A DNA stretch of 35,468 nucleotides from Kiritimatiellia bacterium. Its GTDB lineage: Bacteria > Verrucomicrobiota > Kiritimatiellia > RFP12 > UBA1067. Both the position numbers and the translations under genes were made by a program. The first letter of the stretch is position 1. The number at the start of each line of letters is the position of its first letter. Shown here piece after piece: positions 27,376-35,468 of this stretch. The notes under the pieces were generated by a model. It searched no databases. It was not told the origin of the DNA and saw nothing but the letters and a program-made list of their open reading frames with translations. Where the stretch lies: contig JAFXIL010000058.1 of assembly GCA_017563185.1 (NCBI GenBank), forward strand, positions 1 through 35,468, written 5' to 3'.

Positions 27376-29409
<2,034 letters not shown>

Positions 29410-30767: not shown

Positions 30768-31139
30768 TCACTGTTTAGGTCGATAATCCTCTGGAACTTC
30801 GCCGATATCCTCAAGGCGTATGGACAGCACGGTGTCAATCACATGATTATAGTACTTGACCTTCAAATCACGACGCTTTAGTGAAGATATCTTCTGGCAA
30901 AGGCGAAATATGTATATGCGTTTGTCCATTCTGCCATACATCTCGGTGTTCCATATCTTGGACCAATTGTCGAAATCATCCTTGATTTCCGATTCCACCT
31001 TAACGGTCTGATCTGCCGTAACGTTCTGCGTCGCGTTTGTACCTAGGACTTCTTTAGGCAGTTCGTGTGGACATGCCGTTAACGTAGCCAACGCTGCCAC
31101 ATACAGAACGAGTAATCTGATCTTTGCTGCCATATTCAT
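30768..31139 (-). CDS. Small lipoprotein of unknown function
   Basis: 123 residues. A signal peptide with a good lipobox (LTAC, Cys at about 23) predicts lipid attachment at the outer or inner membrane. The mature part starts with a Thr/Asn-rich stretch and continues as a mostly helical, charged domain (DNWSKIWNTEMYGRMDKRIY region) with no family I recognise. GGAGAGAGGAG precedes the ATG by about 6 bases, a strong ribosome binding site. It is the last gene of the accessory block; its codon usage is less GC-biased than the ribosomal genes that follow. A degenerate copy of part of the protease gene lies directly upstream of it. Confidence 0.75.
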   Translation of the reverse strand: MNMAAKIRLLVLYVAALATLTACPHELPKEVLGTNATQNVTADQTVKVESEIKDDFDNWSKIWNTEMYGRMDKRIYIFRLCQKISSLKRRDLKVKYYNHVIDTVLSIRLEDIGEVPEDYRPKQ

Positions 31140-31227
31140 TTTTTGCTCCTCTCTCCTTCTTCATGGCGAAGGGTTTGAAGATGACGAAGGGGCGAGAACC
31201 AAAACACCGTCTAGGAAAAGTGTCCGG

Positions 31228-31317
31228 TTGATACTGGTACGCAAAACTTCCGTCCGGGAACAGCTCCGCCTGGAAGTTGGTGATGCAGTTCACGTCGCGG
31301 TTGAATTGCCACGAATA
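31228..31317 (-). pseudogene. Gene remnant duplicating part of the metalloprotease gene
   Basis: Just after the stop of the preceding gene, a frame with no proper start encodes FNRDVNCITNFQAELFPDG and then SFAYQYQ. It matches the protease segment VNRDENCITNFQAEFFADG plus RFSYRY. At DNA level 31264-31304 and 34507-34547 agree at 40 of 41 positions. After this segment the frame turns to nonsense and runs into the lipoprotein's ribosome binding site. It is a broken piece of a paralogue, or a recombination scar. Confidence 0.6.
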
Positions 31318-31321
31318 AGCC

Positions 31322-32170
31322 TCACTCTCCGATGTTCAGCTGCACAAGCGGTTGTCCGGACGAGAGCAATTGGTTTGTCACAGAGATAAAGTGTTCTCCT
31401 GACAATTCTGCATATATTGGCATTGAAAGCACGTTTAGTGCGTGTTCCAATCTGTTGGAACTTGTTTCATATCCGCTTATGTATCGGACAAAGAGTCCGT
31501 CCACAATGGAATATGCGGCTGACGGCAACATGCGATTTCTGTAGAACATGCTTACGGCACGATCTCGAACCGCCCGCTGGGCGTCGTTTGTGGCATTAAA
31601 ACCCAACAACATATAGGCATATTGGCAACTGGCCGCACCATATTCTCGGCGAGTGTATTCCGCTGTGTTTGTCATAATTGTCTCAGCAAAGGCAGTTGTA
31701 GAATCGTCAATTGGACAAAACTGTATTGCAAGTCTTATGGCGTCGTTGCGATATATTCCATTGGGATTTAGCGCAAGCGCTTTCAACGACTGTGCGGCCT
31801 CAACATAGTTCAGCGTGCGGCACTGATCGAGTGCCACACGAACATATTGCTTGTCCAGCGCCGAGAGCGCCCTGCAGTCATTCGTGCCCAACGTCGATAG
31901 ATACCATGCGAATGCAGCCTTCTTCTCCGCCAACGTCCACCCATGGCTCTCGTCACGCCCCAGAAATCCCGGCCAAGTCACAGGAGCCTCGCGATTGCCG
32001 ATCCACGGCTTCCCATCAAGCAGGTTGTCGTTCGCAGAAAAAATGATGCTCCCAAGCATCCCCCGCACCAGTTCATTGGTTTCAGCAGGCGAATGCGCAG
32101 ACAATGTCCATGCCAGCGACATGACCGCGACTGCAAAGATGACTATGTGGTTTATGATTTGCGTGTTCAT
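31322..32170 (-). CDS. Exported protein of unknown function, coupled to the metalloprotease
   Basis: 282 residues. The N-terminus has a hydrophobic signal segment (about 8-25, ending LSA). The mature part is predominantly helical with regular spacing, for example WPGFLGRDESHGWTLAEKKAAF and then a run of helices with Ala/Leu faces, suggestive of a HEAT/TPR-like solenoid; I recognise no family. The ATG overlaps the protease stop by ATGA, so the two are translationally coupled and the product may be a chaperone, inhibitor or substrate-binding partner of the protease. That is inferred from position only. Confidence 0.75.
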   Translation of the reverse strand: MNTQIINHIVIFAVAVMSLAWTLSAHSPAETNELVRGMLGSIIFSANDNLLDGKPWIGNREAPVTWPGFLGRDESHGWTLAEKKAAFAWYLSTLGTNDCRALSALDKQYVRVALDQCRTLNYVEAAQSLKALALNPNGIYRNDAIRLAIQFCPIDDSTTAFAETIMTNTAEYTRREYGAASCQYAYMLLGFNATNDAQRAVRDRAVSMFYRNRMLPSAAYSIVDGLFVRYISGYETSSNRLEHALNVLSMPIYAELSGEHFISVTNQLLSSGQPLVQLNIGE

Positions 32171-35100
32171 TTTGAATACACTTTCTCGTTGGACGGTTCT
32201 ATGCCGGAAGCTCCGACGTTCTGGTGGTCTTTATCAAGAATCTTTGAAAGCCCGTACACCTTGCCAGAAGGGATGTCGCCAATGACGTTATTGGTGCTGG
32301 TTGAACTTTCAACTCCAAGCATAAGGAGCATGTCGATTGTAGAGGCTATCGTGTCGCAATTCTCGTAGAATCCCCTTCCGGTTTCACGACGCCAGTCGTG
32401 CTCATGGTCTGTGAAAACATGCTTGTCCAATGGGTTGAGCCTTGCCCCCAGACTCCAGATGGTGTTAGTTCCGTTTGCGGCGACTTGCACTGAATGACAG
32501 ATGTCTTTCAACCCTAACGTATGTCCTAGCTCGTGCGCCAAGACATATTTAAAATCCGTCCTGCCTATGATCACCCCAAATTCAGTGGTGATGGCAGCTA
32601 CGGAAGGATTGACTATGCCACCGACAAAATACACCTCTACGCAGTCGTTGGTTTTGTAGTTGTTTAGAAGTGTCATCATTTGGCTAGTGACATATTCCGA
32701 GTAAGAAACCTCTCCGTAGATATTTGTTGTCACGTTGCACATGGGGACAATCCAGTTATTAGTGGCATCGATATTCTGCGGCACGCCGACCATCTCAAAA
32801 CGGATGCCTACCTGCGTGAATATCTCATTGGCAGTGTCAAGCATGTCACTGACATCAGAATGTAACCAGGCATTATCCCTCATGTCCTGCGGAGGTTTCA
32901 CGATAAATGTTTTCAACGGTATCGTGCGCGGCATCACAACTGGCAACTTGAAACTTGGCTGTATCTCATCTCCGTTGAAGCGCGCCTCGACCACGACGTC
33001 CTCGTTCGTGCCAGTGGGCACAACAGTTGTGGTAAAGCCGTTCATGGGCGAAATGTCCGCCGAACCTGACACTACACGCCATTGAACGTTGGTGGCATCG
33101 AAGTCACCGTTCACGCCAACCCGCAGAACGGCATTGGTGCCCATCACAAGCCGCGATGGATTGATGAAACGGCCCGCATCCTTCTCCGTCGTCACCAGTT
33201 TGCGAAGCGGCTCTATGCACTTGAAGCTCGCCGTATCCGAAAGCGTTCCGCCGCCGTCGAGCGACACCGTGGCGGTGAGCGTCCCCGTGCCTGTTTGCGG
33301 ACACGACACACAGATCGTGTGCACTCCCATTCGCGTAAAAGGATCTGTCACCGCAAGCGGCAGCACGGTTGTTCCCGTTATTCGGTTCGTCACGTCATTC
33401 TCCACATAGCACACGACAGGATTGGCTGTGCCCTGCGCCGATATCGTCAAAGTGCCGCTAGTTCCATAGGGCGCCTGCAGATTCAGCGTTACGGGGCGTA
33501 TGCGCTCGGGACGGTTTGTAGGACATGCTCCGCCATCTAGGAAGTCTGCGTCATTGAGGAAGAACACCTCCTGGCAGCCGATCGTCAAATTTGGCGTGGG
33601 TTCGGTGTTCTGGCCCACCGTGAACCAAGTCGTGTTCGTGATGGCATAGCCGCCCACATATTCCGTAACAAGCGAGACATGGTTGGTCGCCCACTGCACG
33701 AAGTTCGTGGAAGTGTAAGAGACTATTGTGTTGAGAGAATGCGGATCAAGGAAGGAAATGCCATTGCCGCCAGACCAAGTACATCCCAGATAGGCGTTGG
33801 CATGACAGTTGGTCACAACAGCCGTAAGTTGTGCAATGTTGCCGGGATAGAGGTGCGTGAGGTATTGGTCATCCACGGATACTTCCGCGGTGCGCCGTAT
33901 CCAGCCCGTGCGAGGACTGTCGAGATGCACCACCACGTCGCCTGTCATGCACTCATATGGAAATACGCAGTTGATTGATTGTGGAATTGTGAAATTGTGC
34001 AAATGTAGCAATGTGACATTATGAAATTGGGTTTCGCCGCCAATGCCCAATGCCTCATTTCCATAATTCCACAATTCCACAATTGCACATTCATTGAGCT
34101 CGCCGTCCGAGAGCGAGAACGGAACCTGCGCACCGCAGTCGATGGCGTAGAGCAGTTCGGCGTTGCCGTCCGCCATCACGGGGACGCCGCCCACCTCAAC
34201 GCACACGGGCCATCTGCCGCCCTGCAGGGCGATGTTTAGACCAACAAGGCGACGGTTCGGATCGGACGCCCTCTGCACCACCCACGCGGCGTAGCCACCC
34301 GCAGAAGCGATCTCGGCCGCGTTGCTCGGGAAAGCCACAGCCGCCCACGCCTCGCTCTGATTCCACGCTGTCGTGGCAAGCGGGATCTCCGGTTCTGGAT
34401 CAATCGCGTTTGGCAGTCCGTCAAAGTCAAGGTCAAGCGGATGCACTCTTGAATATCCAACCGTGCGGTCATCGTAGCGGTATGAGAATCGTCCGTCGGC
34501 AAAAAACTCCGCCTGGAAGTTGGTGATGCAGTTCTCGTCGCGGTTGACGGGCGAGTTCTCCCATGTGACAACCAACGAGTTGGACGGCGAGACGGCGTGC
34601 CAGAACACATTGGAGACACCGCTCGGCAGAATATTCCAGTTGAAGGACGGCACAACCGCAAGCGGTACCTCGAACGGCGGAGGGAAGTATGGCGTGCGCA
34701 ACGCCGGACGTAGCCCTCCATCGGAGAAAACCGTCATGCCCTCAAGAAAACCGTCGCGCCACGGACACGACCATCCGACGGCGGGGATATGCATCACATC
34801 CATGAAACCGCCACGCACAAGCCAATCCTCATGTATCTGCGGAGCGTCAAAGGCGTCACGCCCAATAATCTCACAACCTTCGCGGATTTCGGCAACGCGC
34901 CAGCAGTTGGTAATGTCCTCGTCCGTAATCTGAACCTGCGAACCTCCCGAGCGCAATGGCAAGCCAAGGCCCAGATGCTGGTAGGGCGGCCAGCCCTCTG
35001 GCCGCCGCAATGGCTCGCCGCTGACTTGTCCCTGCTGCACTTGGTTCGTAGGATCGCCGGGAACTTTGACGGACCCCATCGAAACGCCAATCCCAAACAT

Positions 35101-35277
35101 CACGGACATTAAGAAGACGCCAAGGAGGCCACATCTGCATATCTTCACGGCGGACATCTTCACGCTCTTCATCAGCGCAACAGCCGACGAGGCCGTGAGG
35201 ACGCCAAGCGACAGCACGACCAACGCGTACAGCACGAGGCTCTGACATGACTCGAGAAACAACTTCACGTCATTCAT
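32167..35277 (-). CDS. Large membrane-anchored or secreted zinc metalloprotease (metzincin-like)
   Basis: 1036 residues. Two hydrophobic segments lie at about 13-35 and 49-69; either both anchor the protein or the second is a signal from a start at Met36/41. The ATG at 35277 is preferred because GAGGTG precedes it. Residues ~90-330 and ~330-830 look like beta-rich modules (one with NCITNFQAEFFADG, several Ig-like repeats from ~480). The C-terminal domain holds HELGHTLGLKD (His915, Glu916, His919, Asp925), the HEXXHXXGXXD zinc site of metzincin/snapalysin-type enzymes, and a later Met-containing STIDMLLML that could be the Met-turn. A palindromic element (33978-34085) is read through in frame. 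It starts 10 bases after the stop of the upstream partial gene and overlaps the next gene by ATGA. Confidence 0.85.
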   Translation of the reverse strand: MNDVKLFLESCQSLVLYALVVLSLGVLTASSAVALMKSVKMSAVKICRCGLLGVFLMSVMFGIGVSMGSVKVPGDPTNQVQQGQVSGEPLRRPEGWPPYQHLGLGLPLRSGGSQVQITDEDITNCWRVAEIREGCEIIGRDAFDAPQIHEDWLVRGGFMDVMHIPAVGWSCPWRDGFLEGMTVFSDGGLRPALRTPYFPPPFEVPLAVVPSFNWNILPSGVSNVFWHAVSPSNSLVVTWENSPVNRDENCITNFQAEFFADGRFSYRYDDRTVGYSRVHPLDLDFDGLPNAIDPEPEIPLATTAWNQSEAWAAVAFPSNAAEIASAGGYAAWVVQRASDPNRRLVGLNIALQGGRWPVCVEVGGVPVMADGNAELLYAIDCGAQVPFSLSDGELNECAIVELWNYGNEALGIGGETQFHNVTLLHLHNFTIPQSINCVFPYECMTGDVVVHLDSPRTGWIRRTAEVSVDDQYLTHLYPGNIAQLTAVVTNCHANAYLGCTWSGGNGISFLDPHSLNTIVSYTSTNFVQWATNHVSLVTEYVGGYAITNTTWFTVGQNTEPTPNLTIGCQEVFFLNDADFLDGGACPTNRPERIRPVTLNLQAPYGTSGTLTISAQGTANPVVCYVENDVTNRITGTTVLPLAVTDPFTRMGVHTICVSCPQTGTGTLTATVSLDGGGTLSDTASFKCIEPLRKLVTTEKDAGRFINPSRLVMGTNAVLRVGVNGDFDATNVQWRVVSGSADISPMNGFTTTVVPTGTNEDVVVEARFNGDEIQPSFKLPVVMPRTIPLKTFIVKPPQDMRDNAWLHSDVSDMLDTANEIFTQVGIRFEMVGVPQNIDATNNWIVPMCNVTTNIYGEVSYSEYVTSQMMTLLNNYKTNDCVEVYFVGGIVNPSVAAITTEFGVIIGRTDFKYVLAHELGHTLGLKDICHSVQVAANGTNTIWSLGARLNPLDKHVFTDHEHDWRRETGRGFYENCDTIASTIDMLLMLGVESSTSTNNVIGDIPSGKVYGLSKILDKDHQNVGASGIEPSNEKVYSK
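33978..34085. repeat. Imperfect 37-bp inverted repeat inside the protease gene
   Basis: Left arm 33978-34014 and right arm 34049-34085 pair at 30 of 37 positions, with a 34-base loop. The arms contain tandem AATTGTG-like units and are far richer in A/T than the surrounding gene. The element is read in frame (peptide NYGNEALGIGG region) without a stop. It looks like a MITE- or REP-like palindromic insertion; there is no transposase nearby. Confidence 0.7.
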
Positions 35278-35286
35278 CGTGTCACC

Positions 35287-35468
35287 TCAGAAGAAACACC
35301 GTGCCGTCAACCGACGCCTTGACCGCAGCACGAAACTCAGTGAAAACGAAAGCGTGCCTGTTGCCGACAGCGCATTCAGCGCGATGTTCGTACAGGCACC
35401 CGCATCTGCAAAGTCAGGCTGCGGCAACGGCGCGGCAGCCGCATATGCAGCCGCCACAAGGGCACAAA
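35287..35468 (-). CDS. 3' end of an unknown gene upstream of the protease
   Basis: A frame is open from the window edge to a TGA at 35287-35289, giving 59 visible residues, Ala-rich at first and then PDFADAGACTNIALNALS and TLSFSLSF. The last ~16 residues are Arg-rich, and a one-base shift would instead give EFRAAVKASVDGTVFLLR with a stop 1 base earlier in phase, so the true end may be frameshifted. The stop lies 10 bases before the protease start, so both are probably in one operon. Too little is visible to assign a function. Confidence 0.45.
   Translation of the reverse strand, partial: CALVAAAYAAAAPLPQPDFADAGACTNIALNALSATGTLSFSLSFVLRSRRRLTARCFF

What the first reader, a model, noticed from the sequence alone, without database searches (positions are those of the whole stretch)
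30768..35468. Accessory protease block with an unknown coupled partner
A very large metzincin-like protease with two N-terminal hydrophobic segments is translationally coupled to an exported helical protein of unknown family, then a lipoprotein. Base composition is visibly less GC-rich than in the flanking genes and repeats cluster here. It may be a transferred surface-protein-degrading or maturation system.
Basis: partly seen in the sequence, partly recalled or inferred. Interest (0 to 1): 0.5.

Follow-up and report, generated by a model that had tools for sequence, protein, structure and literature searches.

The report
Bacterial protease toxin with its antidote
A bacterium related to uncultured ruminant-gut species appears to carry a self-contained weapon, a membrane-anchored protein ending in a zinc protease together with the exported antidote protein made right after it, and it belongs to a large family of swap-the-tip toxins that seems undescribed in this bacterial group.

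Summary
Window 32167-35277(-) encodes a 1036-aa protein with two N-terminal hydrophobic segments and a C-terminal metzincin-like domain. It overlaps by 4 nt a 282-aa exported all-helical protein, followed by a 123-aa lipoprotein, all at lower GC than the flanking genes. The best reading is not a surface-protein maturation system but a polymorphic toxin and its immunity protein. The N-terminal part (two hydrophobic segments plus a ~185-aa 'core') is shared with many proteins that end in unrelated tips; two distant ones carry RHS repeats and end in Colicin M or Tae4. Among 95 core genes, tips fall into 19 clusters and downstream genes into 38; 257 of 259 gene pairs sharing a partner cluster share a tip cluster (best of 1000 shuffles: 87). 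Of 50 full-length partners, 40 directly follow a metzincin tip and 3 follow another partner. The partner is predicted as a helical solenoid. One T6SS marker is absent from the genus, so delivery is unknown. Named relatives are Kiritimatiellae/Lentisphaerae MAGs, many from ruminants. I call it a new variant of a known kind, with an apparently undescribed N-terminal module; toxicity and protection are inferred, not tested.

The parts
32167..35277 (-). Polymorphic-toxin gene, 1036 aa: two hydrophobic segments, core, linker, C-terminal metzincin-like tip
35062..35241 (-). Two hydrophobic segments (aa ~13-72) with a K/R-rich loop between them; predicted to leave the rest outside the inner membrane
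   Evidence: topology inferred by the positive-inside rule
34381..34929 (-). Core domain (aa ~117-299), shared with proteins that have unrelated C-terminal tips; ends in a D-x-D-x-D-G-L motif
32170..32958 (-). Metzincin-like tip (aa 774-1036), modelled at mean pLDDT 86.7
32503..32535 (-). HELGHTLGLKD zinc-binding motif (HExxHxxGxxD), aa 915-925
32314..32325 (-). L-M-x-G around Met986, candidate Met-turn
   Evidence: Met and Gly invariant in 31 sequences; fold
31322..32170 (-). Predicted immunity protein, 282 aa, exported, all-helical; 4-nt overlap with the toxin gene
31325..31390 (-). Conserved 3' end of the partner gene (NQLLSSGQPL tail), 84-89% DNA identity to six own-genome paralogues (L038: 71% over a longer stretch)
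31219..31317 (-). Remnant of a second core domain (matches aa 237-272) directly behind the partner gene
30768..31139 (-). 123-aa lipoprotein gene, single copy; possible orphan immunity gene of a lost toxin (inference)
35287..35466 (-). Remnant of the upstream exported ~200-aa protein found in front of many relatives; broken here by an internal deletion of about 355 bp relative to L034
33977..34083 (-). 107-bp palindromic in-frame segment that recurs at other positions in related genes

Best explanation
This is a polymorphic toxin-immunity operon. The 1036-aa protein is the toxin: two N-terminal membrane segments tether it (predicted inner membrane, bulk outside), the core is a constant module, and the C-terminal metzincin domain is the exchangeable warhead that would cleave proteins in the envelope of a competing cell. 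The 282-aa protein, made by coupled translation and exported to the same side, is its immunity protein, a helical solenoid that binds and blocks this warhead. Tip and immunity gene are replaced together by recombination between the constant core and conserved downstream sequence, leaving core remnants and orphan downstream genes. Shown by sequence: the architecture, tip exchange, family-specific pairing, tandem partners, mosaic DNA. Inferred: toxicity, inhibition, topology, the exchange mechanism, delivery to other cells.
For: (1) The same N-terminal part is joined to other tips in this genome: DNA 35326-34390 is 86% identical to L034, whose later part shows no protein match, while 34884-34097 is 86% identical to L042, a metzincin relative, with further L042 similarity to 32803 (the two stretches overlap at 34884-34390; for the proteins). 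(2) Relatives with the same order of two hydrophobic segments and core carry RHS repeats and end in Colicin M (E 1.6e-21, L106) or Tae4 (E 7.4e-20, L273); N-termini. (3) Among 95 core genes with a downstream gene, 257 of 259 pairs sharing a partner cluster share a tip cluster; maximum of 1000 shuffles 87. (4) Of 50 full-length partner ORFs, 40 directly follow a metzincin tip, 3 follow another partner, 4 sit at contig edges, 3 have neither. (5) Downstream genes have a hydrophobic N-terminus in 103 of 112 cases, against 7 of 18 genes of this window. (6) Tip and partner similarities correlate, r 0.84, n 32, highest of 5000 permutations 0.274; partial r given the core 0.52, n 12, p 0.002. (7) Metzincin fold: ulilysin Z 12.9, rmsd 3.0 over 178 residues. 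(8) Patchy distribution.
Against: No experiment; toxicity and protection are inferred from organisation. Only 2 of the 41 tips scanned (of 107 core ORFs) hit a known antibacterial toxin domain, and both are on RHS scaffolds, not on the ~900-1000-aa form seen here. VipB was found in 0 of 16 genus genomes, and no other delivery route was tested. Eight of 23 metzincin-tip core genes have a downstream gene outside this partner's cluster. The upstream exported gene is broken here. The correlation also contains shared ancestry. The downstream gene was chosen by a simple rule (longest ORF starting near the toxin's stop), export was judged by hydrophobicity alone, and most genomes are fragmented MAGs. 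The 123-aa lipoprotein has no relative in the loci searched, so its role is a guess.
Confidence: 0.82

Rival explanations
1. A membrane-tethered housekeeping or surface-processing protease with a dedicated chaperone or inhibitor: the partner keeps the protease silent until it matures surface proteins.
For: Metzincin fold, exported partner, membrane anchor; many secreted proteases have inhibitors or prodomains (general knowledge).
Against: The same scaffold carries Colicin M, Tae4 and other unrelated tips; the partner is missing from most genomes (found in 15 of 161) yet present in 15 places in one genome (G011); tandem partner genes occur.
Confidence: 0.09
2. The metzincin is not the warhead but a releasing peptidase that cuts the toxin free, as proposed for most PVC-metallopeptidases (here PVC = Photorhabdus virulence cassette) in polymorphic toxins (PMC3482391, passages read).
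For: That paper gives this as the usual role of such domains.
Against: The metzincin is the last domain; most tips end in a conserved ...VGA...EVYSK-like tail with nothing behind it. The partner family goes with the metzincin tip. The same paper says that versions at the extreme C-terminus likely act as toxins, with a verrucomicrobial RHS example.
Confidence: 0.05
3. A variable surface-antigen or phase-variation family without toxic function, diversified by recombination.
For: Multi-copy, mosaic, repeat-containing genes with shared ends.
Against: The zinc motif HE[LIF]GH is kept in 41 of 48 tip hits, the rest being mostly fragments; enzyme tips elsewhere; tip-specific partners.
Confidence: 0.04

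Closest known systems
Polymorphic toxin systems (Zhang et al. 2012, PMC3482391; passages read)
   Same: Constant N-terminal part, exchangeable C-terminal tip, adjacent partner gene, tandem partner genes (polyimmunity loci); metallopeptidase tips and HEAT-repeat immunity proteins are listed there.
   Different: The N-terminal part (two membrane segments plus core) has no Pfam or NCBIfam match near a cut-off, and I did not see it in the passages read; the whole paper was not read.
Rhs/YD-repeat toxins
   Same: Some relatives with this core contain RHS repeats and Rhs core domains.
   Different: No Pfam RHS match in the window protein; no VipB in the genus.
CDI systems (CdiA/CdiI) (recalled)
   Same: Toxin tip paired with an adjacent immunity gene.
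   Different: No filamentous haemagglutinin match in the window protein; a CdiB-type transporter was not searched for, and the contig ends just upstream.
Metzincins: pappalysins (ulilysin, mirolysin) and adamalysins/reprolysins
   Same: Predicted fold (Z 11-13), HExxHxxGxx(D/H), invariant Met.
   Different: Third ligand usually Asp; sequence only weakly similar (best PDB E 1.5e-4); sits as the last domain of a tethered modular protein.
HEAT-repeat immunity proteins (listed in PMC3482391, passage)
   Same: All-helical protein beside a toxin; solenoid-like model.
   Different: No significant sequence or Foldseek match; listed there with Tox-REase-7, here with a metzincin, and exported.

Membership tests
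Polymorphic toxin system | Constant N-terminal region joined to several unrelated C-terminal tips | tested here: met
Polymorphic toxin system | Tips include known antibacterial toxin domains | tested here: met
   Colicin M and Tae4, one tip each of 41 scanned (details); both on RHS scaffolds
Polymorphic toxin system | Tip-specific partner gene directly downstream | tested here: met
   257 of 259 pairs; 40 of 50 full-length partners behind a metzincin tip
Polymorphic toxin system | Partner neutralises the tip | not testable with these tools
   needs a toxicity and rescue test
Polymorphic toxin system | Tip exchange by recombination, orphan modules | tested here: met
   Mosaic DNA and core remnant; tandem partners; the recombination mechanism itself is inferred
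T6SS-delivered effector | T6SS present in the producer | tested here: not met
   VipB/TssC: 0 of 16 genomes of the genus, with E. coli positive among 14 controls; one marker only, fragmented MAGs
Rhs toxin | RHS/YD repeats in the protein | tested here: not met
   No RHS match in the window protein, though some relatives have them
Metzincin | HExxHxxGxx(H/D) zinc motif | tested here: met
   HELGHTLGLKD; both His and the Glu invariant, Gly and Asp at least 90% in 31 aligned tips; HE[LIF]GH in 41 of 48 tip hits
Metzincin | Met-turn below the active site | tested here: inconclusive
   Met invariant in 31 sequences within a metzincin-like model; geometry at the zinc site was not measured
Metzincin | Fold | tested here: met
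   Foldseek E 2.7e-5 to PAPP-A; ulilysin Z 12.9, rmsd 3.0, 178 aligned
HEAT/ARM solenoid immunity protein | Alpha-alpha superhelix | tested here: inconclusive
   AP-3, CNOT9, importin and armadillo-type matches at Z 8.7-10.2, within the range that helical repeats reach by chance; Foldseek best E 0.15

The most novel reading that the evidence does not exclude
A previously undescribed class of polymorphic toxins, in the genomes sampled almost confined to one order of Kiritimatiellae and apparently independent of T6SS: a conserved two-segment inner-membrane tether plus core displays any of many envelope-targeting tips outside the inner membrane, with exported immunity proteins and often a conserved exported upstream protein as a third component, hence a new delivery route. 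In the metzincin branch the partner's strongly conserved C-terminal tail (NQLLSSGQPL) may be the element that plugs the active site.
Probability: 0.45. Interest if true: 0.75.

Novelty: new variant of a known kind. Interest (0 to 1): 0.62.

Why it matters
If right, it adds a large toxin arsenal to uncultured Kiritimatiellae, a group for which my full-text searches found no paper on polymorphic toxins (the one paper concerns an Rhs-like giant protein of another PVC-superphylum clade); the library searched lacks most subscription journals. It gives ready toxin-immunity pairs for testing, including metzincin warheads with helical inhibitors, and poses a concrete question: how a tethered toxin without a detected T6SS reaches another cell. 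The core profile would let annotators find and name many proteins whose core matches no Pfam or NCBIfam family now.

Tried and rejected
A ribosomal S7 search gave nothing useful. Pfam and NCBIfam gave only weak sub-threshold hits for the core, the 282-aa partner and the 155/263/271-aa partners of other tips. PDB sequence search: no match for the core, nothing significant for the partner. T6SS delivery: rejected for this genus on one marker. The 123-aa lipoprotein as part of the pair: no relatives in the genome or in the loci held, so left open. The palindromic segment as a genome-wide element: rejected, as its matches lie on four contigs that carry this gene family. A complex of protease and partner could not be predicted; the two structure jobs went to the monomers, and the core and the 'KFGH' tip class were not modelled. 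The VIA list for the partner shows no immunity protein; that absence is no evidence. Literature listings seen but not opened: (apart from PMC3482391, opened).

Full report
OBSERVATION. The three genes, the 4-nt overlap, the hydrophobic segments, the lower GC and the repeats are all present. Next to them lie L13 and S9 ribosomal genes and a DEAD-box-type helicase (named from its motifs, not searched). The window is the whole of contig C205 of a 3.2-Mb genome in 206 contigs.

THE GENE FAMILY IN THIS GENOME. The 1036-aa protein has 20 matches in its own genome, 8 of them starting or ending within 25 nt of a contig end. Residues 1-298 are 83% identical to the start of a 960-aa protein (L034) whose later part shows no protein match, and the core matches 876-aa and 956-aa proteins (L035, L036) with other tips. 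Other copies keep the metzincin tip (L038, L039, L041, L042). The DNA is a mosaic: 35326-34390 is 86% identical to L034 and the match then stops; 34884-34097 is 86% identical to L042, with weaker similarity further on (74% over 33940-32803); the two stretches overlap at 34884-34390. GC falls in the last quarter (0.587, 0.563, 0.572, 0.476). Behind the partner gene lies a 99-bp core remnant (31219-31317).

TIPS. In relatives the core sits in ~850-1050-aa proteins and in 1400-2600-aa proteins. Two of the long ones end in known antibacterial domains: Colicin M with four RHS repeats (L106; E 1.6e-21) and Tae4 with an RHS repeat (L273; E 7.4e-20). Their N-termini have the same order, two hydrophobic segments and then the core (core E 6.1e-17 and 2.5e-29). 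Of 41 tips scanned, chosen mostly outside the two big classes, one hit Colicin M, one Tae4, up to four reprolysin-type peptidases, eight RHS repeats, and one adenylosuccinate synthetase (the chimera L116); at E 0.01 there was otherwise only a single weak hit here and there.

PAIRING. I took the gene directly downstream of each core gene. For 95 such genes the tips (last 170 aa) form 19 clusters and the partners 38. 257 of 259 pairs that share a partner cluster share a tip cluster; the best of 1000 shuffles gives 87. The two exceptions come from one cluster of L137, L258 and L259, broken metzincin genes whose next ORF looks like the rest of the toxin. One tip class can have many partner clusters (16 for the 'KFGH' class). 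For the 282-aa family: of 50 full-length ORFs, 40 directly follow a metzincin tip, 3 follow another partner, 4 are at a contig edge and 3 have neither; 11 further ORFs are fragments. Of the 23 core genes in the window's tip cluster, 15 have a partner in the window's partner cluster; the other 8, from more distant genomes, have other downstream genes, two of them with a member of the family elsewhere in the same locus. Tip and partner similarities correlate (r 0.84, n 32; partial r 0.52 given the core, n 12). Downstream genes have a hydrophobic N-terminus in 103 of 112 cases against 7 of 18 genes of this window, which fits tips that act in the envelope, as Colicin M and Tae4 do (recalled).

THE TIP. 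The alignment of 31 tips keeps the two His and the Glu, an Asp (at least 90%) as third ligand and an invariant Met; HE[LIF]GH is present in 41 of 48 tip hits. The model (pLDDT 86.7) matches metzincins: Foldseek E 2.7e-5 to PAPP-A, ulilysin Z 12.9. The sequence profile finds reprolysins at E 1.5e-4 and weaker.

THE PARTNER. The model (pLDDT 90.2) is all-helical. It resembles armadillo/HEAT solenoids (Z 8.7-10.2), but this is within the range that helical repeats reach by chance, and Foldseek gives nothing significant. Its C-terminal tail is strongly conserved; a motif for it matched 32 ORFs, all of them partners, and its DNA is 84-89% identical to six own-genome paralogues. This could be a functional tail, a recombination point, or both.

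DISTRIBUTION. The core is in 13 of 16 genomes of the genus and 77 of 161 of the order, but in only 19 of 387 sampled across the phylum, 17 of them in this order (in which at most 8 candidates per genome were scored). The partner is in 6 of 16, 15 of 161 and 3 of 387. Such patchiness suits an accessory system.

UPSTREAM GENE. An exported ~200-aa protein precedes the core gene in 45 of 87 cases with enough room, by single-sequence phmmer, so this is a lower bound. In the window it is a remnant with an internal deletion of about 355 bp relative to L034.

MECHANISM. Most likely a polymorphic toxin tethered in the inner membrane with its tip outside; the exported partner protects the producer and kin. 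Architecture and pairing are shown; activity, topology and delivery are inferred. T6SS is unlikely (VipB in 0 of 16 genomes; one marker).

LITERATURE. Full-text searches for Kiritimatiell with 'polymorphic toxin', with 'immunity protein', and with 'interbacterial' and 'effector' gave no paper. Kiritimatiell with RHS and toxin gave one, where an Rhs-like giant protein is described in a different PVC-superphylum clade (passages read). Verrucomicrob with polymorphic toxin and Rhs gave five (listing seen only, except PMC3482391); metzincin with immunity protein and interbacterial gave one on Bacteroides fragilis (listing only). Zhang et al. 2012 (PMC3482391, passages read) defines the general kind, lists metallopeptidase tips and HEAT immunity proteins, and mentions a metallopeptidase tip behind RHS repeats in the verrucomicrobium Pedosphaera parvula.

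Noticed in passing
window 33977-34083; L036 5859-5966; L037 8932-9038: A 107-bp palindromic segment sits in frame at different positions in several core genes (87-90% identity), like the in-frame palindromic elements recalled from Rickettsia; its matches in the genome are on contigs of this gene family.
   Followed up: partly
L034:8044-8646 and relatives: A conserved exported ~200-aa protein of unknown family precedes many core genes (45 of 87); possibly a third component.
   Followed up: partly
L035, L036, L117-L130, L135, L140 and others: A large second tip class (many ending ...KFGH...R...) with 16 different partner clusters, many of them lipoproteins; no Pfam or NCBIfam match in the two full proteins scanned (L035, L036).
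   Followed up: partly
L116:181-2925: A core gene runs in frame into adenylosuccinate synthetase (PF00709 among the C-terminal segments); chimeric assembly or a real fusion.
   Followed up: no
L142:2616-4752; L240; L251: Tandem partner genes behind one another, as in homogeneous polyimmunity loci.
   Followed up: partly
L043 (C28 of the own genome), ORF of 1132 aa: A metzincin tip relative (HELGHACGWPD) without a detected core, followed by a different exported 276-aa protein.
   Followed up: no
window 29079-29319: The short repeats here fall in the low-complexity Q/A/K-rich N-terminal part of the DEAD-box-type helicase gene (27376-29409), unrelated to the finding.
   Followed up: no
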